Shown: positions 6,901 to 24,093 of the stretch, piece by piece
Numbering within the stretch: the stretch's first letter is position 1
Layout: each line of letters starts with the position of its first letter
Source of the DNA: Reyranellaceae bacterium
Lineage (GTDB): Bacteria; Pseudomonadota; Alphaproteobacteria; Reyranellales; Reyranellaceae
Length of the DNA: 64,000 nt
Direction: 5' to 3'
NCBI GenBank assembly: GCA_022844045.1
Contig: JALHMM010000010.1
Location: 42,802-106,801 of the forward strand
The notes under the pieces: model-generated
What the model saw: the letters and a program-made list of their open reading frames with translations, nothing else
Told to the model about the DNA's origin: nothing
The model's database searches: none
Made by a program: the position numbers and the translations under genes

Positions 6901-6911
6901 GGTTTGCGTCC

Positions 6912-7811: not shown

Positions 7812-7822
7812 GATGTGCGTCC

Positions 7823-10350: not shown

Positions 10351-10358
10351 GGCGCGAA

Positions 10359-10381: not shown

Positions 10382-10427
10382 AGCCGCCATTGGCCCGGTC
10401 AGGGGGAGCTGCCCGCCGTTGGGCAAC
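10380..10427 (-). promoter_or_regulatory. ANTAR-type dual hexaloop RNA element in the nasS leader
   Basis: Read on the minus strand, two hairpins stand 10 bases apart. P1 (10408-10427) has a 7-bp stem (GTTGCCC with GGGCAGC, one G-U pair) and loop AACGGC. P2 (10380-10397) has a 6-bp stem (CGGGCC with GGCTCG, one G-U pair) and loop AATGGC. Both loops have six bases with A at position 1 and G at position 4, the known recognition pattern of ANTAR antitermination proteins. The gene just upstream encodes the ANTAR protein NasT. The predicted sigma-54 start point is immediately before P1. Confidence 0.8.
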
Positions 10428-10438
10428 GACCCTTCCTA

Positions 10439-10455
10439 TTCAAGGAGCGTGCCAA
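10439..10455 (-). promoter_or_regulatory. Sigma-54-like promoter of the nasS-nrtABC-nasA operon
   Basis: The minus strand reads TTGGCACGCTCCTTGAA. This matches the -24 element TTGGCACG exactly and has TTG at the correct distance, with A instead of C in the -12 dinucleotide. The implied start point is near 10428, directly before the ANTAR hairpins. RpoN dependence is well known for nitrate assimilation operons. The -12 deviation lowers confidence. Confidence 0.6.
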
Positions 10456-10500
10456 GCGCGAAACGCCGTGGTTCCAACACATCGGCGGCGCGTGACCCGA

Positions 10501-10522
10501 CGCGCGCTGCCCAAAGCGCGCG
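10501..10522 (-). terminator. GC hairpin after nasT, possible terminator
   Basis: CGCGCGC and GCGCGCG form a perfect 7-bp stem around an eight-base loop, about 25 bases after the nasT stop. There is no U-tract, so it may be a rho-assisted stop, an mRNA-stabilising hairpin, or chance in a GC-rich genome. Confidence 0.35.
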
Positions 10523-10546
10523 CGGCTGCCGAAGTTTCGTCCAGCC

Positions 10547-11155
10547 TCAGGCCTTACCGGTGCCGAGCAGCTCGCTGACCGAGATCACCTGCTCGGCGAT
10601 CTCGACCAGCCGCTTGCTCTTGTCCATCGCCAGCTTGCGCAGCGCCTTGTAGGCCTCGTCCTCGGTGATGCCGCGCTGGTTCATCAGGATACCCTTGGCG
10701 CGATCGATCTGGCGGCGCTCGACCAAAGTCGCCTTGGTGCGTGCCAGCTCGTCGCGCAGTTCCTGCACGGCGCGAAAGCGCGCGATGGCGACGTCCATGA
10801 TCGGCTTCACGCGCGCCGGGCTCAGGCCATCGACGATGTATGACGTCACGCCGGCGCGCACCGCCTCGATGGCCAGCGCCTCGTCGGTCTCGTCGACGAA
10901 CATGACGATCGGCTGGGCGCGCTCGCGCGAGACGCTGCGCATCTGCTCGAGCATGTCGCGATTGGGCGCGGTGACGTCGACGATGATCATGTCGGGCGTA
11001 TGGGCGCGCACGCGCTCAAGGAGGTCGTCGGCGCCGGGGATACGCGCCGCGACCAGGTACCCGGCATCCGCCAGCGCACGTTCCAGCATCGCCGCGCGCT
11101 CGCCGTCCGCATCGACGAGCAGGATGCGCAGCGGTGCATCGCATGTGCCCTTCAT
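10547..11155 (-). CDS. nasT: NasT, ANTAR-domain antitermination regulator
   Basis: A 202-residue protein with an N-terminal receiver-like domain (LRILLVDADGERAAML, then IIVDVTAPNRD) and a C-terminal ANTAR RNA-binding domain (RRQIDRAKGILMNQRG, then EDEAYKALRKLAMD). The phosphoacceptor region keeps an Asp (VDVTAP), but NasT proteins are usually controlled by NasS rather than by a kinase. It should bind paired hexaloop hairpins in nascent leaders; such elements lie in front of nasS and cysG here. The start is uncertain: ATG 11155 gives a typical length, while 11179 and 11194 are in-frame alternatives without good ribosome sites. It is divergent from cysG. Confidence 0.9.
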   Translation of the reverse strand: MKGTCDAPLRILLVDADGERAAMLERALADAGYLVAARIPGADDLLERVRAHTPDMIIVDVTAPNRDMLEQMRSVSRERAQPIVMFVDETDEALAIEAVRAGVTSYIVDGLSPARVKPIMDVAIARFRAVQELRDELARTKATLVERRQIDRAKGILMNQRGITEDEAYKALRKLAMDKSKRLVEIAEQVISVSELLGTGKA

Positions 11156-11268
11156 GCCCGCTGCCGTAGCAATTGCCATGCCGCATCGCACCATCTTGCG
11201 CTGCGCTGCACAAATTTCGCGCAGTTGTGGCTAGCCCCGGGACCTCTAACCCGTTGAAATAATGAGGC

Positions 11269-11284
11269 TGGCATGCCGGTTGCT
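11269..11284 (+). promoter_or_regulatory. Sigma-54-like promoter of cysG
   Basis: TGGCATGCCGGTTGCT matches TGGCAC-N5-TTGCW at every position except the last base of the -24 hexamer (T for C), with GG and GC dinucleotides correctly spaced. The start point would be near 11295, a few bases before the ANTAR-type hairpins of the cysG leader. Confidence 0.7.
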
Positions 11285-11302
11285 ACAGGATGAGGTACGG
11301 GC

Positions 11303-11343
11303 GCGGCAACGATGCCGCACCGACCTAGCGGCACCGGCGTCGT
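11303..11343 (+). promoter_or_regulatory. ANTAR-type dual hexaloop RNA element in the cysG leader
   Basis: P1 (11303-11318) has a 5-bp stem GCGGC/GCCGC with loop AACGAT, extended by two G-C pairs beyond a C-A mismatch. P2 (11328-11343) has a 5-bp stem GCGGC/GTCGT with two G-U pairs and loop ACCGGC. Both loops have A1 and G4, and the linker is 9 bases, almost the same as in the nasS leader. This suggests that NasT controls siroheme synthesis together with nitrate uptake. P2 alone would be weak evidence; the pair, promoter spacing and gene context carry the call. Confidence 0.7.
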
Positions 11344-11349
11344 GCACCA

Positions 11350-11362
11350 TCGCGATTCGCGA
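11350..11362 (+). promoter_or_regulatory. Small hairpin overlapping the cysG ribosome-binding region
   Basis: TCGCG and CGCGA pair around a three-base loop, and the right arm runs into GAGAC, the only purine-rich stretch in front of the ATG at 11371. The position mirrors the third hairpin of the nasS leader. Confidence 0.35.
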
Positions 11363-11370
11363 GACTCCTG

Positions 11371-12696
11371 ATGCGCGCGCTGCCGCTTTTCCATGACCTT
11401 CGCGACCGCCTCTGCCTCGTCGTCGGCGGTGGCGATGCCGCCACCCGCAAGGCCGCCGTACTCGAGTCCGTTGGCGCCCGCGTCGTGCACCGCGAGACCG
11501 CCGACGACCTCCAGGATGTCGCGCTGGTCGTAATCGCCGAGACCAGCGACGAGGTCGCCCGTCATGCCTTCGAGCGATGCAAGGCGCACGGCATTCCCGT
11601 CAACGCGGTCGACCGGCCGCGCTACTGCACGGTGACCTGGCCGGCGATCGTCGATCGCGATCCGATCACTATCGCAATCGGCACGTCGGGCGCCGCGCCG
11701 ACGCTCGCCCGCCTGCTGCGCGGACGGATCGAGCGCACCGTGCCGGCCCCCATGTCCGCTCTGGCCCGTCTGGGCGAGACGTGGCGCGCGCGCGTAAAGG
11801 CCACCTTGCCGGCGCCGGTCTCGCGACTGCGCTTCTGGGAGCGCTTCTTCGAAGGCCCCGTTGCCGAGGCGGCGCTGGCTGGCGACCTTGCCGAGGCGGA
11901 TCGACGCGCCCGCGCGTTGTTGGACGACCGCGAGATCCAACCGCGTGGCATCGTGCATCTCGTTGGTGCCGGGCCGGGCGATCCCGAGCTGCTGACCCTG
12001 CGCGCGCTACGCCTGATCCAGTCGGCCGATGTCATCGTCCACGATCGGTTGGTGAGCGAGGAGGTCCTGGCCTTCGCGCGCGCCGACGCCGAGCGCATCT
12101 ATGTCGGTAAGCGCCGCGCCAATCATTGCGTGCCGCAGCAGGACATCAACGAGCTCCTGGTCGAGCATGCTCGCGCCGGAAAACGCGTCGTGCGGTTGAA
12201 GGGCGGTGATCCTTTTGTCTTCGGCCGCGGCGGCGAGGAGATCGAGTCGTTGCTCGAAGCCGGCATCGCCTGCGACGTGACGCCGGGCATCACGGCGGCG
12301 ACGGGCTGCGCCGCCTATGCCGGCATCCCGCTGACGCATCGCGACCACGCCCATACCTGCCTTTTCGTCACCGGCCATCTCAAGGACGGCGATCTCGACC
12401 TCAACTGGGATGCGCTGGCGCGGCCGCGCCAGACGCTCGCGGTCTATATGGGCGTCGTCTCGCTGCCGCAGCTCGCGCGCCAGCTCATCGCCCATCGCCT
12501 GCCGGGCAGCACGCCGGCGGCGGTGATCATCGACGGCACGCGGCCGACCCAGCGGGTGATCACGGGAACCTTGGCCAGCCTGCCCGGCCTCGCCGCGTCG
12601 GTCGACGCGTCGCGTCCGGCGCTGGTGCTGATCGGCGACGCCGTCGGTGTTGCCGCGCGCGCGCCGACCGAGGCGTGGCCGATGGCGGCGGAGTGA
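11371..12696 (+). CDS. cysG: Siroheme synthase CysG (multifunctional)
   Basis: A 441-residue fusion. Residues 1-115 form a precorrin-2 dehydrogenase/ferrochelatase domain (LCLVVGGGDAATRKA, with the catalytic Asp of NAVDRP). From residue 193 comes the uroporphyrinogen-III methyltransferase domain (VHLVGAGPGDPELLT, RLKGGDPFVFGRGGEE, PGITAATGCAAYAGIPLTHR). Together they make siroheme, the cofactor of assimilatory nitrite and sulfite reductases. Compared with the E. coli enzyme as I recall it, about 20 residues are missing between GARVV and the LVVIAET strand, a region of the Rossmann fold. The start lacks a strong Shine-Dalgarno. It converges on the atz operon with 3 bases between stops. Confidence 0.93.
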   Translation: MRALPLFHDLRDRLCLVVGGGDAATRKAAVLESVGARVVHRETADDLQDVALVVIAETSDEVARHAFERCKAHGIPVNAVDRPRYCTVTWPAIVDRDPITIAIGTSGAAPTLARLLRGRIERTVPAPMSALARLGETWRARVKATLPAPVSRLRFWERFFEGPVAEAALAGDLAEADRRARALLDDREIQPRGIVHLVGAGPGDPELLTLRALRLIQSADVIVHDRLVSEEVLAFARADAERIYVGKRRANHCVPQQDINELLVEHARAGKRVVRLKGGDPFVFGRGGEEIESLLEAGIACDVTPGITAATGCAAYAGIPLTHRDHAHTCLFVTGHLKDGDLDLNWDALARPRQTLAVYMGVVSLPQLARQLIAHRLPGSTPAAVIIDGTRPTQRVITGTLASLPGLAASVDASRPALVLIGDAVGVAARAPTEAWPMAAE

Positions 12697-12699
12697 AGT

Positions 12700-13677
12700 C
12701 TACGGCCGGCGCGACCAGCTCGCGGCGTTGATCGCGCCCGGCGGCACCTCGCCTTTCAGCAGCGCCTGGACTTGGCGCACTGTGTCCATCGCCTGGCTCT
12801 CGCTGGCCGGCGGCGTCAGGCCGCCGATATGCGGCGTGGCGATCACGTTGGGCAAGCGCGCCAGCTCGGGCGAGGGCATCTGGTCGGGCGCGCGGCCGAC
12901 ATCCATGGCGGCGCCGGCGATACGACCCTCACGCAACGCGGCGGCGAGCGCCGCTTCGTCAACGAGGTTGCCGCGCGAGAGGTTGATGAAGAACGCATCC
13001 GGCTTCATGCGCGCGAAAGCCGCGGCATCGAGCAGGTTCTCGGTCTCCTCGTTGGCGATAGCGAGGCAGACGACATAGTCGGCGCGGCCCAGCAGGTCTT
13101 CCATCGGCAGCTTAATGAAGCGCGGATCGTCGGCCTGGGCGTACGGGTCCGAGACCAGCACCGTCATGCCGATGGTCGCGAGCAGCGGCGCGAGATCGCG
13201 CGCGATGCGGCCGTAGCCGATGATGCCCACCGTGCTGCCGGCGAGCTGGTGGCCGACGCGGATCTCCGGCTTATCGCCGGCGTGGTAGGACACGACGGCG
13301 CGCGAGATGCCGCGCGAGAGATCGACGAGGAAGCCCAGCGCCAGCTCGACGACGGACTGCACGAAGCCCGGCTCGGCGCGCGTCACCAGGATGCCGGCCT
13401 TCGACGCGGCCTCGACATCGATGTTGCGGATGTCGACGGCGGTCCGCATCACGGCGCGCACATTGGGTAGGCCTGCGAAGACCTCGCCGGGCACCGCCGT
13501 CGAGCGATCGACGATGATCAGCTCGACGTCGCGAGCGGCGGCAATCAGGCCTTGCGGGTCGAGCGGCGCATCACCCTCGTGCGTGGTCAGCTCGGCCAGC
13601 CCGCGCAGCAGCTCCAGCGGCTTGGCGCCGTAGTACTGACGGCGCGATTGCGGTGTATGGGTCAGTAGCAGCTTCAA
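12700..13677 (-). CDS. D-isomer-specific 2-hydroxyacid dehydrogenase
   Basis: A 325-residue NAD-dependent dehydrogenase. The catalytic-domain start is followed by the Rossmann motif VGIIGYGRIARDLAP, the Arg-containing FFINLSRGNLVDE, AAMDVGRAPD, and the catalytic His of IATPHIGGLTPPASE. It would interconvert a 2-oxoacid and a D-2-hydroxyacid; the substrate is unknown. Translation seems to start at a TTG (13677) that overlaps the atzH stop as TTGA, which indicates tight coupling. It is the last gene of the transporter-atzGEH operon, so it may process the carbon skeleton released from the operon's substrate. That link is inference. Confidence 0.85.
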   Translation of the reverse strand: MKLLLTHTPQSRRQYYGAKPLELLRGLAELTTHEGDAPLDPQGLIAAARDVELIIVDRSTAVPGEVFAGLPNVRAVMRTAVDIRNIDVEAASKAGILVTRAEPGFVQSVVELALGFLVDLSRGISRAVVSYHAGDKPEIRVGHQLAGSTVGIIGYGRIARDLAPLLATIGMTVLVSDPYAQADDPRFIKLPMEDLLGRADYVVCLAIANEETENLLDAAAFARMKPDAFFINLSRGNLVDEAALAAALREGRIAGAAMDVGRAPDQMPSPELARLPNVIATPHIGGLTPPASESQAMDTVRQVQALLKGEVPPGAINAASWSRRP

Positions 13678-14078
13678 GGGCGCATCGGCGTCGTATCGCC
13701 GAGCAGCGAGACGTGCGCGGCGACGATGCGCCAGCCCTCCGGCGTGCGCAGCCAGGTATGGCTCTGGCGGCCGGTCTTGGTGGCGCCGTGGCGGCGGAAC
13801 TCGATATTGGCGGTGCCGAAGTCGCGGCCGTAGGTGACGATCCAGACCTTCAGCAGATCGCGATCCTGCACGAAGGCCGGATCGCGGCCGGAGCGGAAGG
13901 CGGCGATCTCGTCGTGGCCGTAGAGCTGTTCGCCAATGCCGTAACGCAGCGTGTGCGGGCTCTTCCAGAACAGCTCGTCGAGCGTCTTCACGTCATTGGT
14001 GTTGAGCGCGGTCTCGTAGCGATAGAACGCGTCGGTGACTTCCCGGACGACCTCCGGGATATTGATCTCGTGATTCAT
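13674..14078 (-). CDS. atzH: AtzH-like (DUF3225) SnoaL-fold protein
   Basis: A 134-residue SnoaL/NTF2-fold protein of the DUF3225/AtzH group, next to an AtzE homologue. In Pseudomonas ADP, AtzH converts 1,3-dicarboxyurea to allophanate and needs Tyr22 and Arg46. Here Tyr21 (FYRYETAL) and Arg45 (HTLRYG) stand the same 24 residues apart, so the proposed catalytic pair seems kept. Other blocks are FWKSPHTLRYG, EQLYGHDEIAAFR and the C-terminal WRIVAAHVSLL. The ATG at 14078 has AGAGGGG just upstream; an ATG at 14096 is possible. It lies between atzE and the dehydrogenase gene. Confidence 0.85.
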   Translation of the reverse strand: MNHEINIPEVVREVTDAFYRYETALNTNDVKTLDELFWKSPHTLRYGIGEQLYGHDEIAAFRSGRDPAFVQDRDLLKVWIVTYGRDFGTANIEFRRHGATKTGRQSHTWLRTPEGWRIVAAHVSLLGDTTPMRP

Positions 14079-14096
14079 CGGTGCCCCTCTTAGCAT

Positions 14097-15494
14097 CTAC
14101 GCTGGCGGCGCGGCGCAGATTCCTTCCTTCTCCAGCCAGGCCGCGACGCGTAGCGCCGCCTGCTCGTTGAACGGCCGCGCGATCACCTGCACGCCGATCG
14201 GCAGTCCCTCGGGTCGCTGGATCGGCACCGCCACCACGGGCAGGCCGATGAAGGAGATCGGCTGGGTGAAGATGCCGAGATTGGCGCGCACCGGCATCTC
14301 GACCCCGGCGATGCTCATCATCTTCTGCCCGAGCGCCGGCGCGGTGGTCGGCGTCGCCGGCGCCAGGATCACGTCGACCTCGTCGAACAGCTTCAGAGTC
14401 TGCGCGCGGAAGACACGACGCAAGCGCTGCGCCTTGATGTACCAGGCGGCCGGCGTCAACGCCCCGGCCATGAGTCGCTCGCGCGTATCGGGGTCGAAAT
14501 CCTGCGGGCGCTGGCGCAGGCGGTCGAGATGCAAGGTGCCGCCTTCCGACGCGGTGATGACATAGGCCGAGCCGCGCGCGGCGGCGGCGTTGGCGATCAC
14601 CACCTTGCGCGTGACGCCCAGCGCCTTGGCCACCGTGGCCACCGCCTCGGTGGCCACCGGCTCGAGCTGGCGCTCGAAATAGTCCCCGGCCACGGCGATG
14701 CGCAGGCCGCCAAGGCCTTCGTCGAGCAGCGGCATGGTCGCGATCGGCGGCCGCTTGGTGCACACCGGGTCGTCCTCGTCCGGCCCTTGCATGGCGTCGA
14801 ACGACAGCGCGAGGTCGGCGGTCGAACGGGCCAACGGGCCGAGATGGTCGAGGCTGTCGACGAAGGGAAAGCTGCGCGCGCGGCTCAAGCGACCGTAGGT
14901 CGGCTTGAGGCCGAAGAGCCCGCAGAGCGAGGACGGCACGCGGATCGAGCCGTTGGTGTCGGAGCCCAGCGTGATCGGCACTAGCCCGGCGGCGGCGGCG
15001 GCACCTGAGCCACCTGACGAGCCGCCGGTCATGCGCGATGGGTCGCGCGGGTTGCGTGACGGGCCGTAGTGGCTGTTTTCGCCGGTGAAGTCGTAGGCAT
15101 ACTCGCCCATGTTGAGCCCACCCAGCAGAACGGCGCCGGCTTCTTCCATGCGCTCGATCAGGGTCGCGTCGCGCGACGCGGGCGTCAGGTCGGCGTTGAT
15201 CTTCGCGCCGGCCAGTGTCGACAAACCGGCGATGTCGAACAGGTTCTTCACCGCGAAGGGCGCGCCGGCCAGCGGACCGGGATCGCCGCCTGCCGCGATG
15301 GTGGCGTCGATCGCGGCGGCCTTCTTGCGCGCGCGCTCCGCCGTCACCGTCGTGAAGGCGTTGAAGACGCCATCGCGGACGGCGATGCGCGCCAGCGCCG
15401 CTTCGGTCACGGCCAAGGCGGTGACGCGCTTCGCCCGCACCGCCCGCGCGATGTCGGATGCCGTCGCCTGCGCCGACGTCGGATCGACGCTCAT
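14097..15494 (-). CDS. atzE: AtzE family amidohydrolase (1-carboxybiuret hydrolase-like)
   Basis: A 465-residue amidase-signature enzyme. The Ser-cisSer-Lys triad is visible as Lys83 (PFAVKNLFD), Ser159 (MTGGSSGGSG) and Ser183 (SDTNGSIRVPSS). The gene order AtzG-AtzE-AtzH identifies it as an AtzE homologue; in Pseudomonas ADP, AtzE with its small subunit AtzG removes an amide from 1-carboxybiuret, giving 1,3-dicarboxyurea and ammonia. The start overlaps the atzG stop by ATGA, as expected for an obligate complex. No cyanuric acid hydrolase or biuret hydrolase is nearby, so the natural substrate may be a different carboxylated urea or amide. Confidence 0.88.
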   Translation of the reverse strand: MSVDPTSAQATASDIARAVRAKRVTALAVTEAALARIAVRDGVFNAFTTVTAERARKKAAAIDATIAAGGDPGPLAGAPFAVKNLFDIAGLSTLAGAKINADLTPASRDATLIERMEEAGAVLLGGLNMGEYAYDFTGENSHYGPSRNPRDPSRMTGGSSGGSGAAAAAGLVPITLGSDTNGSIRVPSSLCGLFGLKPTYGRLSRARSFPFVDSLDHLGPLARSTADLALSFDAMQGPDEDDPVCTKRPPIATMPLLDEGLGGLRIAVAGDYFERQLEPVATEAVATVAKALGVTRKVVIANAAAARGSAYVITASEGGTLHLDRLRQRPQDFDPDTRERLMAGALTPAAWYIKAQRLRRVFRAQTLKLFDEVDVILAPATPTTAPALGQKMMSIAGVEMPVRANLGIFTQPISFIGLPVVAVPIQRPEGLPIGVQVIARPFNEQAALRVAAWLEKEGICAAPPA

Positions 15495-15676
15495 GGCTCG
15501 AACACCGGCGCGTTCTCGGTGGCGTCCGGCAGCGGCGGCGCCAAGGCCAGGCCGGCGATGGTGCGGGCCACGTTGACGTTGGCGATCACCTTGTCGCGCG
15601 AGGTCGGATCGATCGGCAGGCCGATGACCTTGGCCATGGCGTCGACATACGCGCCGGTATCGTCCTCAGGCTGCAT
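15491..15676 (-). CDS. atzG: AtzG-like small subunit (DUF4089)
   Basis: A 61-residue GatC-like protein: an N-terminal helix (YVDAMAKVIGLPIDP), then RDKVIANVNVARTIAGLAL, and the characteristic tail PDATENAPVFEP. AtzG embraces and stabilises AtzE in the way GatC supports GatA. The ATG at 15676 has AAAGGA about 10 bases upstream. An in-frame ATG at 15700 lies in the repeat upstream and is less likely. It is 20 bases downstream of the ATPase gene, separated by the edge of the repeat. Confidence 0.85.
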   Translation of the reverse strand: MQPEDDTGAYVDAMAKVIGLPIDPTSRDKVIANVNVARTIAGLALAPPLPDATENAPVFEP

Positions 15677-15696
15677 GATGTGCTTGTCCTTTTCCG

Positions 15697-16787
<1,091 letters not shown>

Positions 16788-16791
<4 letters not shown>

Positions 16792-17756
16792 AGTGGGTTC
16801 CGGCAGGCGACGATGTGCGCCTCGGCGATCGCGGTGCGTGGCAAAGGCTCGGCGCAGGCATCGAGGCGCCGCTCGCAACGTTCGCTGTAGCGGCAGGTCG
16901 GCAGGTCGGTGCGGCGCAGGTCGGGCAGCGAGCCCGGGATCGACGCCAGGGACGCGAGCGCGCCGGTTTCGCTGGGCGTGGCCGCCAGCAGACGCGCCGA
17001 GTAGGGGTGGCGCGCGGCGCTGAACAGCGTGGCGCTGGGCGCGCTTTCGACGATGTGGCCGGCATGCATGACGATGATGCGGTCGCAATACTCGGCTGCG
17101 AGCGTCAGGTCGTGGGTGATGAACAGCGTCGCGGTGCCGGTCTCGCGCGCCAGCTCGGCGATCAGGTCCATGATCACCGCCTGCGTCGTGACGTCGAGCC
17201 CGGTGGTCGGCTCGTCGGCGATCAGCAGGCTGGGCCGGCAGGCGATGGCGATGGCGATCATCACGCGCTGGCACATGCCGCCCGACAGCTCGAAGGGATA
17301 GGCCTTGGCGCGGCGTTCCGGGTCGGGAATACGGACCTTCTTCAGCATCTCGATCGCCAGCGCTGGCGCCTTGGCGCGCGTGGCGCCACCGTGGCGGATC
17401 AGCACGTCGGCGATCTGGTCGCCGACGCGGCGGATCGGGTTGAGCGCGGTGCGCGGGTTCTGGAAGATCATCGACAGCTCGCGACCGCGCAGCTCGGCCA
17501 GCTCACGCTCGGGCAGGGCCAGCAGGTCGGCGCCGCCGAACATCGCCGTGCCTGAGGTGACGCGGCCGGCGGCGTCGAGGATGCCCATGGCGGCGAAGGC
17601 GGTGACCGACTTGCCTGAGCCGCTTTCGCCGACCAGCGCCACCGTCTCGCCCTTGGCGATGCCGAAGCCGACCTGGTCGAGCACCTTGACCACGCCGGAG
17701 CGCGTGCGGAACTCGACGCAGAGGTTCTCGACGGCGAGCGCGGGCACGGCGCTCAT
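16788..17756 (-). CDS. Dpp/Opp-type ABC transporter ATP-binding protein (first ATPase)
   Basis: A 322-residue ATPase with Walker [23 protein letters not shown], signature [17 protein letters not shown], Walker [17 protein letters not shown] and switch FITHDL. The C-terminal Cys cluster region ([16 protein letters not shown]) is present. This is the DppD/OppD type and pairs with the next gene. Its ATG overlaps the permease stop (ATGA) and its own stop overlaps the next start. Confidence 0.92.
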
Positions 17757-18598
17757 GTGCGCTTCCTGGGATCGATGATGTCGCGCAGCCCGTCGCCCAG
17801 CAGGTTGAAGCAGAATACCGCCAGCATCAGCGTCGCGCCGGGGAACAGCGCGATCCACCATTCGCCGGACTGGATGAAGTTGGCGCCCTCGGCGACCATG
17901 ATGCCCCATTCGGGCGCCGGCGGGCGCACGCCCAGGCCGATGAACGACAGGCCGGCCGCGTTGAGGATGGCGTAGCCCATGGTCAACGACATCTGCACCA
18001 TCATGATCGGCATGATGTTGGGCAGGATATGGCCGAACAGCACGCGCGCCTCGCCGTTGCCCGACAGCCGCGCCGCTTCGACGAAGCCGACATCGCGGCG
18101 GATATTGGCCTCGGCGCGCGCGACGCGGACGTAGAGCGGGAAGTTGATGATCGCGGTGGCGATGACGATGTTGGTGACTGTGTTGCCCAGGGCGGCGACG
18201 ATGCCCATGGCGAGCACGAAAAGCGGGAACGCCATGATGGTGTCGGCGAGGCGGCCGATGATTCTGTCGGACCATCCCCCGAAGTATCCAGCAGCGACGC
18301 CGGAGACGGCGCCGAGCAGGAAGGCGAGGATCACCGAGGCGAAGGCGATGGTGAGGTCGATCCGTGTCGCCACCAGAACACGGCTGAAGATGTCGCGGCC
18401 GAGCTGGTCGGTGCCGAACCAGTGCGCCGCCGAAGGCGGCTTCAAGGCGAGACTGGTGTTGGTCGCCAGCGGATCGTAGGGCGCGATCAGCGGACCGAGG
18501 ATCGCGGCGAGCAGGAACATCGCGAACAGGCCGAAGGCGAACGCCGTGACCGGATTCTCCGATAGCACGTAGCGGGCGTGGCGCAGGAGGGGGAGCAT
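17753..18598 (-). CDS. Dpp/Opp-type ABC transporter permease (DppC type)
   Basis: A 281-residue inner-membrane permease. It has an N-terminal OppC_N segment with one membrane helix, then LKPPSAAHWFGTDQLGRDIFSRVL, which marks the DppC/OppC group. The EAA loop reads FVEAARLSGNGEARVLFGHILPNIMP and the C-terminus GDGLRDIIDPRKR is typical. The ribosome site (GGGGGAAGAGAAG) lies at the end of the family A repeat immediately upstream. It is the third gene of the operon. Confidence 0.92.
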   Translation of the reverse strand: MLPLLRHARYVLSENPVTAFAFGLFAMFLLAAILGPLIAPYDPLATNTSLALKPPSAAHWFGTDQLGRDIFSRVLVATRIDLTIAFASVILAFLLGAVSGVAAGYFGGWSDRIIGRLADTIMAFPLFVLAMGIVAALGNTVTNIVIATAIINFPLYVRVARAEANIRRDVGFVEAARLSGNGEARVLFGHILPNIMPIMMVQMSLTMGYAILNAAGLSFIGLGVRPPAPEWGIMVAEGANFIQSGEWWIALFPGATLMLAVFCFNLLGDGLRDIIDPRKRT

Positions 18599-18608
18599 CA
18601 GCGCTTCT

Positions 18609-18734
18609 CTTCCCCCGGAGGGGGAAGGTGGCAGCGCGAAGCGCTGACGGAAGGGGGATGCCGCAACGACTCGGGAGTCCGTCTTCGACATCCCCCTTCC
18701 GCCCTTCGGGCACCTTCCCCCTCCGGGGGAAGGG
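18609..18734. repeat. Palindromic repeat, family A copy 1
   Basis: Outer arms CTTCCCCCGGAGGGGGAAGG and their complement flank inner arms (a GCGCGAAGCGC hairpin on one side and a GCCCTTCGGGC hairpin on the other) and a variable centre. It sits between the two permease genes of one operon. Confidence 0.9.
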
Positions 18735-18752
18735 ACAAGGAGACTGCCTCCC

Positions 18753-19766
18753 TCACGTGTCGAGCCTCACGCGTGGGTCGACCAGGCCGTAAACGATGTC
18801 GATGATCAGGTTCAGCGTGATGTAGAGTACCGCCATGGTCAGCACGAAGCCCTGCACCGGCGCGTAGTCCGAGGTGATCAGCGCGTTGACGGCGTAGAGC
18901 CCGATGCCCGGCCAGGCGAACACCGTCTCGACCAGCACGTTGGCGCCGAGCAGGAAGGAGAACACCATGCCCAAGGTGGTGATCACCGGCAGCACGGCGT
19001 TGCGGAAGGCGTAGGTGAACACGACGGTGCGCGGCGCCAGGCCACTGGCGCGCGCGGTGCGGATGAAGTCGCTGCCCAGCACCGAGAGCATCGAGCCACG
19101 GGTCATGCGCGCCAGCGGCGCCAGCGAGAAGATCGCCATCGCGGACGCCGGCAATGCGAGCTGCCGCAGGCTGCCCCAGAACGCCTCGCCATTGCCGGTG
19201 AGCGCGCTGTCGATCAGGTAGAAGCCGGTGATGTGGGTGGGCGGCGAGACGAAGATGTCGAGCCGGCCGGTGGGCGCCGGCGCGATCTGCAGCAGGTAAT
19301 AGAAGACATAGGCGAAGAGCAGGCCGGTGAAGAATACCGGCAGCGAGACGCCGGCCGTGGTGACGACGCGGCAGAGATGGTCGATCCACGATCCTTGCTT
19401 CACCGCCGCCAGCACGCCCAGCGGGATGGCGATGCCAGCGGAGACGATGAGCGCCACGAGGGTCAGCTCGGCCGAGGCGGGCAGCCGGTTGGCGATCTCG
19501 GTGACGACCGGCTGGCCGGTCGACAGCGAGGTGCCGAGATTGCCGCTCAGCAGGTCGCCGACATAGACGATGAACTGCTCGGGCAGCGACTTGTCGAGGC
19601 CGAGCTTGGTGCGGATCTCGGCGATCGCCTGCGGTGTCGCGGCCAGCCCGGCGAAATACGCCGCCGGGTCGCCCGGCAGCAGGCGTGTGAGCATGAAGGT
19701 GACGATCACCACGCCGATGACGCTCGGCACGGCCGTCGCCAGCCGCGACAGGATCTGGCCGAGCAT
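18753..19766 (-). CDS. Dpp/Opp-type ABC transporter permease (DppB type)
   Basis: A 337-residue permease with the standard DppB/OppB start (first membrane helix followed by FMLTRLLPGDPAAYFAG), the LPASAELTLVALIVS segment, and the C-terminal FAWPGIGLYAVNALITSDYAPVQG block and YGLVDPRVRLDT end. The EAA loop reads DFIRTARASGLAPRTVVFTYAFRNAVLP. It is 12 bases downstream of the binding-protein gene and is separated from its partner permease by the family A repeat. Confidence 0.93.
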   Translation of the reverse strand: MLGQILSRLATAVPSVIGVVIVTFMLTRLLPGDPAAYFAGLAATPQAIAEIRTKLGLDKSLPEQFIVYVGDLLSGNLGTSLSTGQPVVTEIANRLPASAELTLVALIVSAGIAIPLGVLAAVKQGSWIDHLCRVVTTAGVSLPVFFTGLLFAYVFYYLLQIAPAPTGRLDIFVSPPTHITGFYLIDSALTGNGEAFWGSLRQLALPASAMAIFSLAPLARMTRGSMLSVLGSDFIRTARASGLAPRTVVFTYAFRNAVLPVITTLGMVFSFLLGANVLVETVFAWPGIGLYAVNALITSDYAPVQGFVLTMAVLYITLNLIIDIVYGLVDPRVRLDT

Positions 19767-19778
19767 CTTGCCGGATCC

Positions 19779-21380
19779 TCAGCCCTTGACGAGCTGGCGG
19801 TAGTCGAGCTGGCGGTGGAACCAGTAGCGGTAGCCGGTGACGTTCTTCTGCATCGCCACGTTGAGCAACGGCTGGAACAGCGGAATGCGCGGCACTTCCT
19901 CGAAGGCGGTGTCGACGAAGCCCTTCACCGCCGCCTCGTATTCCGGCCCCGTCGAGAAGCGCGCCTTGTCGATCAGCGCGTCCATGGCGGGGTTCTGGTA
20001 GCTCATCGTGTTGAAGACGGCGTTCTGGCCGTGATAGCACCAGAAGAAGAAATACTCGGCGTAGTTCAGCCAGCCGCCGAAGGTGTTGGTGATCATCGGC
20101 ATGTTCTTCTTCAGGAGCTCGGCGCGCCAGTTGGCGCCGGGGATCTTGTTGATCGTCGCCTTGATGCCGATCTGGCCGAGGCTTTCCTGCAGCAGGATGG
20201 TGAGCGGCTCGTTGATGCCGGCGAGCCCGAGATCGAAGCTCAGCGTGGTCTCGAAGCCGTTGGCGTAGCCCGCTTCGGCCAGCAGCGCCTTGGCCTTGGC
20301 CAAGTCGGTGGTGTAGCCGTGCTTCTGCGGCCAGCCCGTGCCTTTGGCCTTGTTGTCGGCGCCGCCGTAGAGCGGGATCGACTGGCCGAACATCACGGCG
20401 TCCTGGATCTTCTGGTAGGGGATGGCGTAGGCCACCGCCTGCCGCACCTTCACGTTGTCGAACGGCTTCTGCTTCACGTTCATGCCGATGTACTGCATGG
20501 CGTTCTCGACCGGCGTGCCGACAATGGTCAGCTTGGGCGAGGCCTTCAGCTCGGAGAAATCCTTCGAACCGAGATCGAAGGAGATGTCGGCGTCGCCACG
20601 CTCCAGCAGCGCGCGGCGGTTGCCGGCGGAGGGGATGATGCGCAGGATCACGCGGCGGATCTTGGGCAGCGGTCCGTTCTTCCACTCGTCGTTGCGCGCG
20701 TAGACGACCTCCTGGCCGGGCTGCCAGCGCTCGATCTTGTAGGCGCCGCCGCCGGCGAGGTTGTTCTTGGTCCACTCCATCGCCCAGGGATCGGTCGCCG
20801 TCGCGTTCTTTTTGGCGAGCTCCGAGTGCATGACCACCGGCACCGGCACCGCCATGTCGGGCATGGTGAGCTTGTCGGCGCGCACGAAGTCGACGCGGAA
20901 GGTATGGTCATCGACGGCGACGAATTGCTCCGGCTTCTCCAGCGAGCCCGCCCGCATCTGGAAGGTCGGGAAGCCGCCCACCGTGACGGCGCGATCGAAC
21001 GACCACTTGACGTCCTTGGCGGTGATCGGCGTGCCGTCGTGGAACTTCGCATCCTTGCGCAGCTTGAACGTCGCCGAGGTCGGCGTGACGTTCCAGTCGG
21101 TCGCCAGCTCGGGCTCGAGCTTGGAATAGTCGTAGTGGTCCTGGCCGGTGGCGTCCTTCTTCACGCCGTAGGTCATCAGCCGGTCATGCGTATTCCACGA
21201 CACCTCGTAGGACGGCCGGTTGGCGCCCACGCCATGGATGTCCATCATGTTGGGCGTGTTCTCGGCGACGATCAGCAGCGTCTCCTGCCGGGACTGCGCT
21301 TTCAGCGGCGAGAACACTGCTGGCGCCGCCATCGACGTGGCCAAGGCGCTCGAAGATGCGAGAAAACTGCGGCGCTTCAT
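19779..21380 (-). CDS. ABC transporter substrate-binding protein, peptide/nickel (SBP_bac_5) family
   Basis: A 533-residue periplasmic protein with a Tat-like signal (KRRSFLASSS) cut near SPLKAQS. It contains the family core: L-E-P-E-L-A-T-D-W, KLRKDAKFHDGTPITAKDVKWSFDR, VRQAVAYAIPYQKI and KAKALLAEAGYANG. It binds the solute imported by the operon's permeases. Since the operon also encodes AtzG, AtzE and AtzH homologues and has a sigma-54 promoter, the ligand is probably a nitrogen-rich small molecule rather than a peptide; that is inference. The ATG has GGGAGA upstream. Confidence 0.9.
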   Translation of the reverse strand: MKRRSFLASSSALATSMAAPAVFSPLKAQSRQETLLIVAENTPNMMDIHGVGANRPSYEVSWNTHDRLMTYGVKKDATGQDHYDYSKLEPELATDWNVTPTSATFKLRKDAKFHDGTPITAKDVKWSFDRAVTVGGFPTFQMRAGSLEKPEQFVAVDDHTFRVDFVRADKLTMPDMAVPVPVVMHSELAKKNATATDPWAMEWTKNNLAGGGAYKIERWQPGQEVVYARNDEWKNGPLPKIRRVILRIIPSAGNRRALLERGDADISFDLGSKDFSELKASPKLTIVGTPVENAMQYIGMNVKQKPFDNVKVRQAVAYAIPYQKIQDAVMFGQSIPLYGGADNKAKGTGWPQKHGYTTDLAKAKALLAEAGYANGFETTLSFDLGLAGINEPLTILLQESLGQIGIKATINKIPGANWRAELLKKNMPMITNTFGGWLNYAEYFFFWCYHGQNAVFNTMSYQNPAMDALIDKARFSTGPEYEAAVKGFVDTAFEEVPRIPLFQPLLNVAMQKNVTGYRYWFHRQLDYRQLVKG

Positions 21381-21415
21381 GATGCTGGATCTCCCGTCTG
21401 CCCCGACACACAGGC

Positions 21416-21431
21416 AGCAAGGGATGTGCCA
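21416..21431 (-). promoter_or_regulatory. Sigma-54 promoter of the transporter-atzGEH operon
   Basis: The minus strand reads TGGCACATCCCTTGCT, an exact match to TGGCAC-N5-TTGCW. The start point would be near 21405, leaving a leader of about 25 bases before the binding-protein ATG at 21380. Confidence 0.8.
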
Positions 21432-21477
21432 GCCCCTCGCACGTTGATTCACAGGGTTGTCTGATACCTGCGCGGAC

Positions 21478-21492
21478 AATTTGCATACAATC
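21478..21492. promoter_or_regulatory. Candidate GntR/FCD operator
   Basis: The imperfect palindrome ATTTGCATACAAT resembles the TTGTATACAA-type sites bound by FCD-class GntR regulators, one of which is encoded at 23407-24093. It lies in the spacer between two divergent sigma-54-like promoters. Confidence 0.4.
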
Positions 21493-21501
21493 AGGCGTCA
21501 A

Positions 21502-21520
21502 ATGACTATTTTTTAGTCAT
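21502..21520. promoter_or_regulatory. Perfect AT-rich palindrome between divergent promoters
   Basis: ATGACTA and TAGTCAT form a perfect 7-bp inverted repeat around five T. In a sequence this GC-rich, a site like this in a shared regulatory region is likely a protein-binding site, perhaps for the sigma-54 activator or the GntR protein. Confidence 0.5.
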
Positions 21521-21548
21521 ACCCGAGGCGCATGGCGTTCTTTGGGGG

Positions 21549-21564
21549 TGGCACAGGGCTTGAT
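21549..21564 (+). promoter_or_regulatory. Sigma-54-like promoter of the allophanate hydrolase gene
   Basis: TGGCACAGGGCTTGAT has a perfect -24 element and TTG at the right distance, with A in place of C in the -12 dinucleotide, the same deviation as in the nasS promoter. The start point would be near 21575, 21 bases before the ATG. Confidence 0.55.
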
Positions 21565-21595
21565 TAGGGAAGCGGCAGTTCGAGGGGGAGGCGTC

Positions 21596-23434
21596 ATGGC
21601 GTCGGTGCGAGAGAGCCTGGATATCCAGCGCCTGCGCCAGGAGTACCGCGAGGGTCGGCGCAAGCCGTCGACCGTCATCGAGACCGTGCTCGCGCGGATC
21701 GCGGCGGCGGGCGAGGACGCGGTGTGGATCAGCCGCGTCGCGGACGGGGCGTTGCGGTCGGCCGCCGCCAGCCTTGATCGCGCCTTGGCCACCGATCCGA
21801 CGATCCTCGATCGCCAGCCGCTGTTCGGCGTGCCCTTCGCGGTGAAGGACAATATCGATGTCGCCGGGCTGCCGACCACGGCGGCGTGCCCGGCCTTCGC
21901 CTATGCGCCCACGACATCGGCCACCGTCGTCGAGCGGCTGACGGCGGCCGGCGCGCTGGTCATCGGCAAGACCAACCTCGACCAGTTCGCCACCGGCCTG
22001 GTCGGCGTGCGTTCGCCCTATGGCGTGGCGCGCAATCCGTTCAACGCCGACTACCTGCCGGGTGGCTCGAGCGCGGGCTCGGCGGTGGCGGTGTCGTCGG
22101 GCTTGGTGAGCTTCGCGCTGGGCACCGATACCGCCGGCTCGGGCCGCGTGCCGGCGGGCTTCAACAACCTGGTCGGGCTCAAGCCCACCATCGGCCTGCT
22201 GTCGACCGCGGGCGTGGTGCCGGCCTGCCGCGCGCTCGACGTGGTCTCGATCTTCGCCCTCACCATCGGCGACAGCCTTGCGGTGCTGCGCGCCGCCATG
22301 GGCTTCGACGCCGCCGACATCTATTCGCGTGCCGCGCCGGCGGGCTTCGTCGCCGATCTCACCGCGCCACCCGCCCGTTTCCGCTGTGCTGTGCCGAGGC
22401 CAGATCAACGCGAGTTCTTCGGCGATGCGCAGGCCGCGTCGATCTACGCCCAGTCGCTCGAGCGACTGCAACGCTTGGGTGCCACCCTTGTCGAGATCGA
22501 CTACGCACCGCTCGCCGAGGCCGCCGCCGTGCTCTACAGCCCGGCCGGCGCGGCCGAGCGCACCACGGCGATCGACGCCTTCATCGCCGAGCGCGGCGAG
22601 GCCATGCACCCCGTCACGCGCGCCATCATCGACAGCGGCCGCAAGGCGACGGCGGTCGACGTCTATCGCGCACGCGATCGACTGCGCGGCTTGCGCCGTC
22701 ACGCCGAGGCGATCTTCGCGGACTGCGAGGTGCTGGCGGTGCCAACCTCGGGCACGATCTATCGCGTCGCCGAGGTGCTGGCCGATCCGGTGCGGCTCAA
22801 CAGCAATCTCGGCCACTACACCAACTTCGTGAACCAGCTCGATCTCTCGGCGCTCGCCGTGCCATCAGGCTTTCGCGCCGATGGCCTGCCCGCGGGCATC
22901 ACGCTGATCGCGCCGGCCTTCCGCGAGGGTCGCCTCGCGGCGATCGGCGAGGCTTTCCATCGCGATGTCGGCGGCACGATGGGCGCCACCGGTGTCGCGC
23001 TGCCGCCGGCCGAGCCGACGGGCGCCGCACCGAGCTATCCCGAGATGCCGATCGTCGTGGTCGGCGCGCATATGCACGACCTGCCGCTCAATCGCGAGCT
23101 CCAGGCCTTGGGCGCGCGCTTCGACTCGGCCTGCACGACGGCTGCGACCTATCGCTTCTACCGCCTGCCGGGCGCCGGCGTCGCACGGCCCGGGCTGGTG
23201 CGCGTGGCCAGGGACGGTGTCGCGATCGAAGGCGAGGTCTGGCGGCTGCCCACCGAGGCCGTCGGCGCCTTCCTGGCGCGTATCCCTTCGCCGCTTGGCC
23301 TTGGCGACGTCATGCTGGCCGATGGCCGCAAGGTGAAGGGCTTTCTCTGCGAAGCCGCCGCCGTCGAGGGCGCCGAGGACATCTCGGCCTGCGGCGGCTG
23401 GCGCGGTTATCTCGCGCGCGCCTCCGCGACATAG
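21596..23434 (+). CDS. atzF: Allophanate hydrolase (AtzF/DUR1-amidase type)
   Basis: A 612-residue two-domain enzyme. The amidase-signature domain holds Lys84 (PFAVKDNID), Ser158 (LPGGSSAGSA) and Ser182 (TAGSGRVPAGF). The C-terminal domain from about residue 455 (IVVVGAHMHDLPLNREL through GWRGYL) is specific to allophanate hydrolases. It splits allophanate to ammonia and carbon dioxide and could finish a pathway started by the divergently encoded AtzGE and AtzH. No urea carboxylase is present. GGGGGAGG lies just before the ATG. Its 3' end overlaps the convergent GntR gene by 28 bases. Confidence 0.93.
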   Translation: MASVRESLDIQRLRQEYREGRRKPSTVIETVLARIAAAGEDAVWISRVADGALRSAAASLDRALATDPTILDRQPLFGVPFAVKDNIDVAGLPTTAACPAFAYAPTTSATVVERLTAAGALVIGKTNLDQFATGLVGVRSPYGVARNPFNADYLPGGSSAGSAVAVSSGLVSFALGTDTAGSGRVPAGFNNLVGLKPTIGLLSTAGVVPACRALDVVSIFALTIGDSLAVLRAAMGFDAADIYSRAAPAGFVADLTAPPARFRCAVPRPDQREFFGDAQAASIYAQSLERLQRLGATLVEIDYAPLAEAAAVLYSPAGAAERTTAIDAFIAERGEAMHPVTRAIIDSGRKATAVDVYRARDRLRGLRRHAEAIFADCEVLAVPTSGTIYRVAEVLADPVRLNSNLGHYTNFVNQLDLSALAVPSGFRADGLPAGITLIAPAFREGRLAAIGEAFHRDVGGTMGATGVALPPAEPTGAAPSYPEMPIVVVGAHMHDLPLNRELQALGARFDSACTTAATYRFYRLPGAGVARPGLVRVARDGVAIEGEVWRLPTEAVGAFLARIPSPLGLGDVMLADGRKVKGFLCEAAAVEGAEDISACGGWRGYLARASAT

Positions 23435-24093
23435 GCGAGCGATGCGTCACTGACCGTGTGGACATGGGCGCGCATGTGGGCGGCCGCCTTCGCGGCGTCG
23501 CCGCGCTGGATCGCCTCGACCACCAGCGCGTGTTCGCCGAAGGACTTCGCCAGGCGTCCCGCGACGTTGAACTGACCGGTGCGGTAGGGTGCCACGCGGC
23601 GGCGCGCGGCGTGGGTGGTTTCCTCGAGCGGCCGATTGTGGCCGCCGCGGTAGATCGCGGCGTGGAACTCGGTGTTCAGCGCGTCGTAGTCCTCGCGCAC
23701 GCTGCGCCGCATCGCCTCGCCCGCCCGCTCGTGGATGTCCGCCAGCTGGCGCCGTTCGACCGGCGTCATGCGCCGCGCCGCGTAATGGGCGCACAGGGCC
23801 TCCAGATCGGCCATCAACTCGAAGGCTTCGCTGACCACGGCGGGTGCCATGACGGCCACCACCACGCCTCGGCCCTGGCGCTGCGCCAGGCCGATGCCGA
23901 CCAGCTGGTTCAATGCCTCGCGCACGGGGGTACGCGACACGGCGAAGCGCTCGGCCGTGCCGACCTCGTCCAGCCGGGTGCCGGGCGCCAACTGGCCGGT
24001 GATGATCTCATCGGCCAGCCGCCGGCGGATGCTCTCGGCGCGCGTTGCCGCCTCGTCATCGGCAATCGACACGATCGGGCTGGCGATCGACAT
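23407..24093 (-). CDS. GntR family transcriptional regulator, FCD type
   Basis: A 228-residue regulator: winged helix-turn-helix (SIRRRLADEIITGQLAPGTRL, then RFAVSRTPVREALNQLVGIGL) followed by an all-helical FCD ligand domain with metal-site-like residues (DALNTEFHAAIYRGGHNRPL and EHALVVEAIQRGD). FCD regulators usually sense small carboxylic acids. It is flanked by the allophanate hydrolase and an FMN-dependent 2-hydroxyacid dehydrogenase, so it probably controls this locus, perhaps through the palindromes at 21478-21520. It is transcribed towards atzF and overlaps its 3' end. Confidence 0.9.
   Translation of the reverse strand: MSIASPIVSIADDEAATRAESIRRRLADEIITGQLAPGTRLDEVGTAERFAVSRTPVREALNQLVGIGLAQRQGRGVVVAVMAPAVVSEAFELMADLEALCAHYAARRMTPVERRQLADIHERAGEAMRRSVREDYDALNTEFHAAIYRGGHNRPLEETTHAARRRVAPYRTGQFNVAGRLAKSFGEHALVVEAIQRGDAAKAAAHMRAHVHTVSDASLAYVAEARAR

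What the first reader, a model, noticed from the sequence alone, without database searches (positions are those of the whole stretch)
12700..23434. Sigma-54-linked AtzG-AtzE-AtzH-AtzF pathway with its own importer but no ring- or biuret-opening enzyme
AtzG, AtzE and AtzH homologues are in one operon with a five-part Dpp-type transporter and a 2-hydroxyacid dehydrogenase, and AtzF is divergent. Triad residues of AtzE and AtzF and the AtzH pair Tyr21/Arg45 are intact. In Pseudomonas ADP these enzymes handle 1-carboxybiuret made from cyanuric acid by AtzD, which is absent here, as is urea carboxylase. The cluster probably breaks down an imported carboxylated urea or amide of natural origin. The two 2-hydroxyacid dehydrogenases suggest a substrate built from a hydroxyacid and a urea-type unit. 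The pathway seems undescribed.
Basis: partly seen in the sequence, partly recalled or inferred. Interest (0 to 1): 0.85.

Follow-up and report, generated by a model that had tools for sequence, protein, structure and literature searches.

The report
Split triuret pathway using AtzG-E-H-F
This gene cluster, whose characterised relatives finish the breakdown of the herbicide remnant cyanuric acid, is predicted to finish the breakdown of triuret, a small nitrogen-rich urea compound, because the same genome carries genes of the triuret- and biuret-hydrolase families on another contig and some related bacteria keep both sets side by side.

Summary
The genes are as described: a minus-strand operon dppABCDF-atzG-atzE-atzH plus a 2-hydroxyacid dehydrogenase (21378-12700), divergent atzF (21596-23434), and sigma-54 sites. 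The reading that no upstream enzyme exists fails at genome level. On contig C9 of the same assembly lies a BMP-type ABC importer cluster with an isochorismatase-like hydrolase carrying all six triuret-hydrolase (TrtA) signature residues, and a second carrying all six biuret-hydrolase (BiuH) residues. TrtA makes 1-carboxybiuret, the AtzGE substrate (PMC7948467). Relatives join the halves: Terrarubrum, Hoeflea, Ahrensia, Rhizobium and two Bradyrhizobium have trtA in or beside atzGEH/atzF clusters; 40 of 50 AtzE-locus genomes searched encode a full-length TrtA homologue. Both halves share sigma-54 promoters (dppA 44 of 44, BMP 18 of 21, trtA 14 of 23; other operon-first genes 49 of 1443) and an operator-like TTGTATGCAA, though the own C9 promoter lacks the latter. 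The hydroxyacid idea is weak: the dehydrogenase is in 27 of 80 loci. Best reading: the lower half of a split triuret/carboxybiuret regulon, a new variant of known pathways giving orphan atzGEH clusters a testable function. Enzyme and importer specificities are untested.

The parts
12700..13677 (-). D-2-hydroxyacid dehydrogenase (PGDH/glyoxylate reductase-like), last gene of the operon; lineage-specific, probably not core
   Evidence: TIGR01327 181 bits, below cut-off 454; in 27 of 80 related loci
13674..14078 (-). atzH/hpxZ homologue, predicted decarboxylase of the AtzE product; Tyr21 and Arg45 intact
   Evidence: NF033625 182 bits; best solved relatives 6BJT/6D63 AtzH; 58% identity to pADP-1 AtzH, 50% to Klebsiella HpxZ
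14097..15494 (-). atzE homologue, predicted 1-carboxybiuret hydrolase catalytic subunit
   Evidence: NF006631 711 bits; best solved relative 6C62 508 bits, next best GatA 249; 55% identity to pADP-1 AtzE, 52% to Klebsiella HpxY; tree
15491..15673 (-). atzG homologue (60 aa), predicted AtzE partner
   Evidence: PF13318 55 bits
15697..16791 (-). dppF-type ABC ATPase
16788..17756 (-). dppD-type ABC ATPase
   Evidence: gene call; clusters with dppD of relatives
17753..18691 (-). dppC-type permease
   Evidence: 73% identical to the permease in the Terrarubrum trtA-atzF-atzGEH cluster
18753..19766 (-). dppB-type permease
19779..21377 (-). dppA-type solute-binding protein (SBP_bac_5), predicted importer specificity subunit, ligand unknown
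   Evidence: PF00496 276 bits
21417..21431 (-). sigma-54 -24/-12 site TGGCACATCCCTTGC ahead of dppA
   Evidence: sites in 44 of 44 dppA promoters read
21481..21490 (.). operator-like TTGCATACAA (reverse of TTGTATGCAA), predicted GntR site
   Evidence: 175-fold denser in promoters of this pathway in relatives than elsewhere in the same loci; only two exact copies in the own 6.4 Mb
21503..21519 (.). palindrome TGACTATTTTTTAGTCA; same architecture as TGCCT-N7-AGGCA upstream of the BMP gene on C9
   Evidence: 7 of 186 promoter regions, the window's counted twice, versus 2 of 3720 random segments; noticed by eye first
21549..21563 (+). weaker sigma-54-like site ahead of atzF
   Evidence: two mismatches to the searched pattern
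21596..23434 (+). atzF homologue, predicted allophanate hydrolase
   Evidence: TIGR02713 740 bits; best solved relatives are allophanate hydrolases 4GYR and 4CP8
23407..24093 (-). GntR/FCD regulator, predicted regulator of this cluster and, in relatives, of the trt/biu cluster
   Evidence: PF00392 and PF07729; homologues in 43 of 80 related loci and beside BMP-nup-biuH-trtA clusters (L157-L159)

Best explanation
The dppABCDF-atzG-atzE-atzH operon and its divergent atzF likely form the lower half of a triuret pathway whose predicted first enzyme, TrtA, is encoded on another contig of the same genome. Proposed steps: an importer (the Dpp-type one here and/or the BMP-Nup type on C9; ligands unknown) would bring in triuret or related ureides. 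TrtA (C9) would hydrolyse triuret to 1-carboxybiuret plus ammonia (activity known for Herbaspirillum TrtA, inferred here). AtzGE would deaminate 1-carboxybiuret to 1,3-dicarboxyurea before it loses CO2 to give biuret, AtzH would decarboxylate that to allophanate, and AtzF would hydrolyse allophanate to ammonia and CO2 (steps known for the Pseudomonas ADP enzymes, inferred here). BiuH on C9 would catch the biuret that forms anyway. Nitrogen control would act through sigma-54, and a GntR/FCD regulator would respond to a pathway compound. Shown by sequence: the genes, their family assignments, the TrtA/BiuH signatures, the joined clusters in relatives, the shared promoter sites.
For: (1) TrtA releases 1-carboxybiuret, and AtzEG acts on it in the ADP pathway (PMC7948467, passages). 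(2) Own C9: TrtA-type protein best hit 6XIX (TrtA) 311 bits versus BiuH 204; six of six TrtA residues, and six of six BiuH residues in its neighbour; NF050097 425 bits for the latter. C9 and window have the same GC and GC3. (3) Joined clusters: L064 Ahrensia, L067 Hoeflea, L071 Rhizobium; L066, L076 Bradyrhizobium; L102, L129, L121, L123, L133, L134, L136; L213 Terrarubrum with Dpp permease and ATPase, TrtA, NCS2-like permease, atzF, atzG, atzE, hpxZ in a row on one strand. Tardiphaga lacks atzF in the dpp-atzGEH stretch (L065) but has trtA-NCS2-atzF elsewhere (L190). (4) Co-occurrence: 29 of 51 AtzH genomes versus 22 of 334 others have a BiuH/TrtA-type gene; in a sorting by hand, atzG-atzE-linked 18 of 23, other AtzH type 2 of 15, unsorted 9 of 13; TrtA full length in 40 of 50 AtzE-locus genomes searched out of 80. 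(5) Shared regulation: sigma-54 and operator counts, including separate loci of one genome (G203: L110 and L157; G361: L112 and L156). In G280 and G358 the GntR gene lies at the trt/biu cluster and not in the atzGEHF stretch; in the own genome it lies at atzF and not in the C9 stretches.
Against: No activity, growth or binding data. BiuH in the same genome makes AtzGEH partly redundant. The own C9 promoter lacks the TTGTATGCAA operator and its sigma-54 site has one mismatch. 7 of 50 AtzE-locus genomes (all MAGs, including the closest relative L001) show no strong TrtA match and three only broken or partial ones; 5 of 23 atzGEH genomes in the class sample have neither BiuH/TrtA nor AtzD. AtzE is nearly as similar to Klebsiella HpxY (52%) as to ADP AtzE (55%). 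The AtzD family also co-occurs (15 of 51 versus 6 of 334; 33 of 50 AtzE-locus genomes over the cut-off), so cyanuric acid could be another source in relatives. L153/L154 have trtA-atzH with no atzE in the stretch. The Terrarubrum and Salipiger stretches show no sigma-54 site on the plus strand and no operator. TrtA of Ahrensia, Hoeflea and Rhizobium carry Met, not Ala, at one of the six positions. Co-occurrence tests are not corrected for phylogeny; the operator was noticed by eye in part of the loci before it was counted.
Confidence: 0.73

Rival explanations
1. An oxalurate-type pathway: AtzG-E-H work as HpxX-Y-Z, deaminating the terminal ureido group of oxalurate and decarboxylating the product to oxamate, and AtzF serves a separate need.
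For: AtzH scores above the HpxZ cut-off; Klebsiella hpxX-AtzE family gene-hpxZ has the same order and 50-52% identity; the chemistry would be the same (my inference).
Against: No hpxW-type gamma-glutamyltransferase among the operon's translations (rest of genome not searched for it). NF033625 does not discriminate, because pADP-1 AtzH is annotated hpxZ too. AtzE falls in a 34-row clade with most trtA-linked AtzE and apart from Klebsiella HpxY and the ADP/P. putida pair (98/97). trtA, biuH and atzF share its clusters and promoter sites in relatives.
Confidence: 0.12
2. Cyanuric acid catabolism as in Pseudomonas ADP, with an AtzD missed because the assembly is incomplete or because AtzD works in a partner.
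For: The AtzD family is over its cut-off in 33 of the 50 AtzE-locus genomes searched and in 15 of 51 AtzH genomes of the class sample; P. putida L211 has ring-opening amidohydrolase-atzF-atzG-atzE-hpxZ in a row.
Against: No AtzD in the own assembly with positive controls ringing; 0 of 16 AtzD genes read in relatives had a sigma-54 site in the 300 bp ahead of the gene and none an exact operator anywhere in its stretch, two stretches having one with a mismatch (many AtzD genes are internal, so their promoters were not fully tested), whereas trtA and BMP-biuH clusters do.
Confidence: 0.06
3. One reading: an undescribed natural compound built from a hydroxyacid and a urea unit, imported by the Dpp system and oxidised by the 2-hydroxyacid dehydrogenases.
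For: The D-2-hydroxyacid dehydrogenase is in the operon here and in 27 of 80 related loci.
Against: It is absent from 42 of the 43 loci with GntR, can be separated from atzH by an inserted opposite-strand cassette (L003, L005, L012), and the LldD-like gene is beside the cluster in 1 of 80. AtzGEH-F clusters exist without either.
Confidence: 0.05

Closest known systems
atzDGEHF cyanuric acid operon of Pseudomonas sp. ADP plasmid pADP-1
   Same: AtzG, AtzE, AtzH, AtzF homologues (26, 55, 58, 50% identity); catalytic motifs kept; pADP-1 also has a BMP-type ABC importer nearby
   Different: No AtzD here; Dpp-type importer in the operon, atzF divergent, GntR instead of LysR, sigma-54 sites; predicted carboxybiuret source is TrtA on another contig
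TrtA-BiuH-AtzF triuret pathway (Herbaspirillum sp. BH-1, Rhizobium leguminosarum; PMC7948467)
   Same: TrtA-, BiuH- and AtzF-type genes all present in this genome
   Different: Published route runs carboxybiuret to biuret (spontaneous or TrtB) and then BiuH; here AtzGE-AtzH would take carboxybiuret to allophanate directly, and the genes are split over two loci
hpxWXYZ oxalurate operon of Klebsiella
   Same: HpxX, HpxY, HpxZ are homologues of AtzG, AtzE, AtzH in the same order
   Different: No HpxW-like gene in the operon; atzF, Dpp importer and trt/biu regulon partners present
atzG-atzE-atzH clusters of unknown function in Proteobacteria (PMC6219798, Fig 6C/D text)
   Same: Allophanate hydrolase and ABC transporter genes next to atzGEH
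   Different: That section (read in full) does not mention triuret or TrtA and assigns no specific substrate

Membership tests
AtzDGEHF cyanuric acid catabolic operon | AtzG, AtzE, AtzH, AtzF homologues with intact catalytic motifs | tested here: met
AtzDGEHF cyanuric acid catabolic operon | AtzD ring-opening hydrolase in operon or genome | tested here: not met
   PF09663: 0 in own assembly; pADP-1 and G279 ring. Assembly 92% complete
Triuret pathway (TrtA-BiuH-AtzF) | TrtA with its six specificity residues | tested here: met
   L096:14618-15277: F,N,A,E,Y,I
Triuret pathway (TrtA-BiuH-AtzF) | BiuH | tested here: met
   L096:17169-17840, NF050097 425 bits over cut-off 370; Y,Y,S,D,T,V
Triuret pathway (TrtA-BiuH-AtzF) | Growth on or hydrolysis of triuret | not testable with these tools
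   Needs bench work
Triuret pathway (TrtA-BiuH-AtzF) | trtA and biuH in one operon with atzF | tested here: not met
   atzF lies in the window on C10, trtA/biuH on C9; joined in some relatives
HpxWXYZ oxalurate catabolism | HpxX, HpxY, HpxZ homologues in order | tested here: met
HpxWXYZ oxalurate catabolism | HpxW (GGT-like oxamate amidohydrolase) in the operon | tested here: not met
   No such gene among the operon's translations; rest of genome not searched
Sigma-54 regulon | -24/-12 TGGCAC-N5-TTGC ahead of the operon, conserved in orthologous promoters | tested here: met
   dppA 44 of 44; other operon-first genes 49 of 1443
Sigma-54 regulon | Transcription dependent on sigma-54 and an NtrC-type activator | not testable with these tools
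   Needs expression data

The most novel reading that the evidence does not exclude
The ancestral and widespread job of AtzG-E-H is not herbicide breakdown but scavenging 1-carboxybiuret made from triuret, a uric-acid oxidation product, within a sigma-54 and GntR controlled regulon split over several loci. Some lineages fuse it with an 8-oxoguanine deaminase and a purine-type importer, making a route that recovers nitrogen from oxidatively damaged purines, and the plasmid cyanuric acid operon arose when AtzD replaced TrtA as the front end.
Probability: 0.33. Interest if true: 0.75.

Novelty: new variant of a known kind. Interest (0 to 1): 0.56.

Why it matters
AtzG-E-H genes were discovered in an atrazine-degrading strain, yet are reported as far commoner than cyanuric acid catabolism (PMC6219798) and had no assigned natural function outside it in the sections and passages I read, apart from the homologous hpx genes. 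Linking them to TrtA gives a concrete substrate to test, explains why a cell would keep an enzyme for a short-lived intermediate, and suggests where the lower half of the s-triazine pathway came from. If right, triuret use is encoded in Bradyrhizobium, Reyranella-like and other bacteria in scattered pieces that single-operon searches would miss.

Tried and rejected
Rfam scan of the window: nothing. AtzD search in the own genome first gave a silent control and was repeated with positive controls. Oxalurate as sole explanation: weakened by tree and context, not excluded. Urea carboxylase: only biotin-carboxylase and other partial matches. The second palindrome TGNCT-N7-AGNCA is enriched but found in few promoters, so I treat it as weak. 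A second AtzH copy on C30 belongs to another subfamily with a different amidase and was set aside. AtzD as regulon member: no sigma-54 site within 300 bp of, and no exact operator near, 16 AtzD genes read. No structure prediction or structural search was run. The protein homologue search with AtzH added names only. Dropped before counting: G070 (weak match with stops) from the 52 AtzH genomes, leaving 51. Identical promoters were collapsed but not; at least one genome (G280, seemingly the same as G392) is in both the class sample and the AtzE-locus sample. Per-gene counts come from my own simple gene caller and from loci often cut by contig ends, so they are lower bounds; a later tblastn check raised GntR from 42 to 43 because the caller had missed the one in L001. 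The sorting of AtzH genomes into types was done by hand from the maps.
Full report
What is in the window. Translations and family scans confirm the operon on the minus strand from dppA (start near 21378) to the 2-hydroxyacid dehydrogenase (12700), with atzG, atzE and atzH between, and atzF divergent at 21596-23434. AtzE, AtzH and AtzF exceed curated cut-offs; best solved relatives are AtzE 6C62, AtzH 6BJT/6D63 and allophanate hydrolases. Catalytic motifs are intact. Upstream of dppA lies a canonical sigma-54 site and the 10-mer TTGCATACAA. To the left are nitrate-assimilation genes and cysG (names from the translations by recall).

What is missing and what is not. No urea carboxylase over the cut-off and no AtzD were found in the assembly (91.87% complete, 5.79% contaminated, so absence is not proof). 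A search with an isochorismatase-like protein from a Bradyrhizobium atzF neighbourhood (L076) gave two close relatives about 2 kb apart on contig C9, the stop flagged in one being the gene's own end. The stretches hold a BMP binding protein, two permeases, a formamidase-family protein (NF009803 580 bits), a BiuH-type hydrolase, a NupA-type ATPase, a TrtA-type hydrolase and two flanking MFS-like transporters (by recall), but no atzE, atzF or GntR homologue. The TrtA-type protein matches TrtA (6XIX) at 311 bits against 204 for BiuH and has F, N, A, E, Y, I at the positions that PMC7948467 (passages) gives as differing between TrtA and BiuH; the neighbour has the BiuH set Y, Y, S, D, T, V. GC and GC3 match the window, and housekeeping genes such as uvrA and gyrA (named from the translations, recall) flank it, so contamination is unlikely.

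Relatives join the halves. In these, 77 have atzH, 66 atzF, 52 Dpp genes, 27 the dehydrogenase, 5 an isochorismatase of this kind, and 43 GntR; these are lower bounds. The five are Ahrensia, Hoeflea and Rhizobium, each with BMP-Nup importer, BiuH, TrtA (five of six residues, Met at one position) and an 8-oxoguanine-deaminase-like protein (Hoeflea copy 631 bits to NF006055), with a 2OG-oxygenase in Ahrensia and Hoeflea; and two Bradyrhizobium with trtA, an NCS2-like permease and atzF in a row (NCS2 by recall; no Pfam hit). In the class sample, further genomes have atzGEH or atzGE with trtA (L102, L121, L123, L129, L133, L134, L136). A Terrarubrum plasmid has, in a row, Dpp permeases and ATPase, TrtA (six of six residues), NCS2-like permease, atzF, atzG, atzE, hpxZ. 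In Tardiphaga atzF is absent from the dpp-atzGEH stretch and present in a trtA-NCS2-atzF run. A Salipiger plasmid has a Dpp-type system with two isochorismatases that carry neither full signature, so related ureides may be substrates elsewhere. Of 47 TrtA-labelled proteins (some from duplicate genomes), 43 show all six residues, three have Met at one position, and one (L153) had two positions unread.

Statistics. Of 385 alphaproteobacterial genomes, 51 have a usable AtzH match; 29 of 51 have a BiuH/TrtA-type protein (at least 200 bits to NF050097) against 22 of 334 others (odds ratio 18.7). Sorted by hand, it is 18 of 23 where atzE stands beside atzH, 2 of 15 for the other AtzH subfamily, and 9 of 13 unsorted. 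AtzD co-occurs too (15 of 51 against 6 of 334). TrtA was sought in 50 of the 80 AtzE-locus genomes: 40 full length at 58% identity or more, three partial or broken, seven without a strong match (one with a short weak piece), all seven MAGs. These tests ignore phylogeny, and at least one genome occurs in both samples.

Shared control. Sigma-54 sites with at most one mismatch lie within 300 bp ahead of dppA in 44 of 44, of first-gene atzG in 21 of 33, of BMP genes in 18 of 21, of trtA in 14 of 23, of atzF in 33 of 71, against 49 of 1443 other operon-first genes (identical promoters collapsed). TTGTATGCAA with at most one mismatch occurs 66 times in 50.2 kb of pathway promoters (54 of 148 regions) and 19 times in 2.53 Mb elsewhere. 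I noticed it by eye in about a dozen intergenic regions, so those are not independent. It stands ahead of dpp-atzGEH and ahead of BMP-nup-biuH(-trtA) clusters, in two genomes at both, separate, loci (G203, G361); it is rare where atzG is the first gene (1 of 33). In the own genome it occurs only at window 21481 and inside a RutA-like gene on C72, not at C9; there the link is the sigma-54-like site and a second palindrome. A GntR gene related to the window's one lies at the trt/biu cluster in G280, G358 and G203.

Phylogeny. The window AtzE lies in a 34-row clade (98/97) with most trtA-linked AtzE; Klebsiella HpxY and the AtzD-linked AtzE of ADP and P. putida lie outside, as do trtA-linked L121/L123, while the A. 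caldus copy (AtzD-family gene and GGT beside it) lies inside. So the tree favours but does not prove the assignment.

Literature. PMC6219798 (section 14 read; other passages) reports atzGEH clusters with allophanate hydrolase and transporters and no specific function. PMC7948467 (outline, passages, sections named) proposes triuret to carboxybiuret to biuret, noting that AtzEG acts on carboxybiuret in the ADP pathway. PMC12625717 (passages) describes trtA-trtB-biuH-atzF in nitrifiers; its abstract lists 'trtA, biuH, and atzH' as triuret/biuret genes, but atzH occurs nowhere else in the text, where atzF stands in that place, so I take it for a slip, though it would be prior mention of atzH with triuret. 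PMC3560190 (passages) describes the hpxW context. In the searches I saw no other listing or passage that joins AtzG-E-H clusters to triuret; the held library lacks most subscription papers, including the 2018 JBC AtzG paper.

Verdict. Observation largely correct; its central absence is true of the window only. Best reading is a split triuret/carboxybiuret regulon; importer ligands, enzyme specificity and in vivo substrate are inferred.

Noticed in passing
L099:7847-9684 (own genome C30): A second AtzH-type protein beside a different amidase (PRK08310-like); the same pair is seen in 12 of the 60 loci mapped, and genomes sorted to this type rarely have trtA/biuH (2 of 15): another orphan AtzH-like system.
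   Followed up: partly
L153 and L154: trtA is followed directly by atzH and GntR with atzF nearby but no atzE in the stretch; AtzH may act directly on the TrtA product there.
   Followed up: partly
L067:23-2299 (Hoeflea), also L064 (Ahrensia): An 8-oxoguanine-deaminase-like protein and a 2OG-Fe(II) oxygenase head the BMP-Nup-biuH-trtA-atzGE cluster, hinting at a supply of triuret from oxidised purines; a 5-FTHF-cyclo-ligase-family protein (PF01812) sits between atzE and atzH.
   Followed up: partly
L212 (Acidithiobacillus caldus plasmid): Xanthine dehydrogenase, ureidoglycolate lyase, ring-opening amidohydrolase (AtzD/barbiturase family), atzG-atzE-hpxZ and a gamma-glutamyltransferase together: a hybrid of the AtzD and HpxW contexts.
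   Followed up: no
L098:313-10996 (own genome C72): Two luciferase-like monooxygenases, two isochorismatases, RidA-like, alpha/beta hydrolase and hydantoinase-like genes: a RutA/RutB-like pyrimidine cluster (names by recall); one exact TTGTATGCAA lies inside a gene here.
   Followed up: no
window 6097-12696: nasT/nasS-like regulators, nrtABC-like nitrate importer and cysG directly beside the operon (names by recall), consistent with a nitrogen-assimilation neighbourhood.
   Followed up: no
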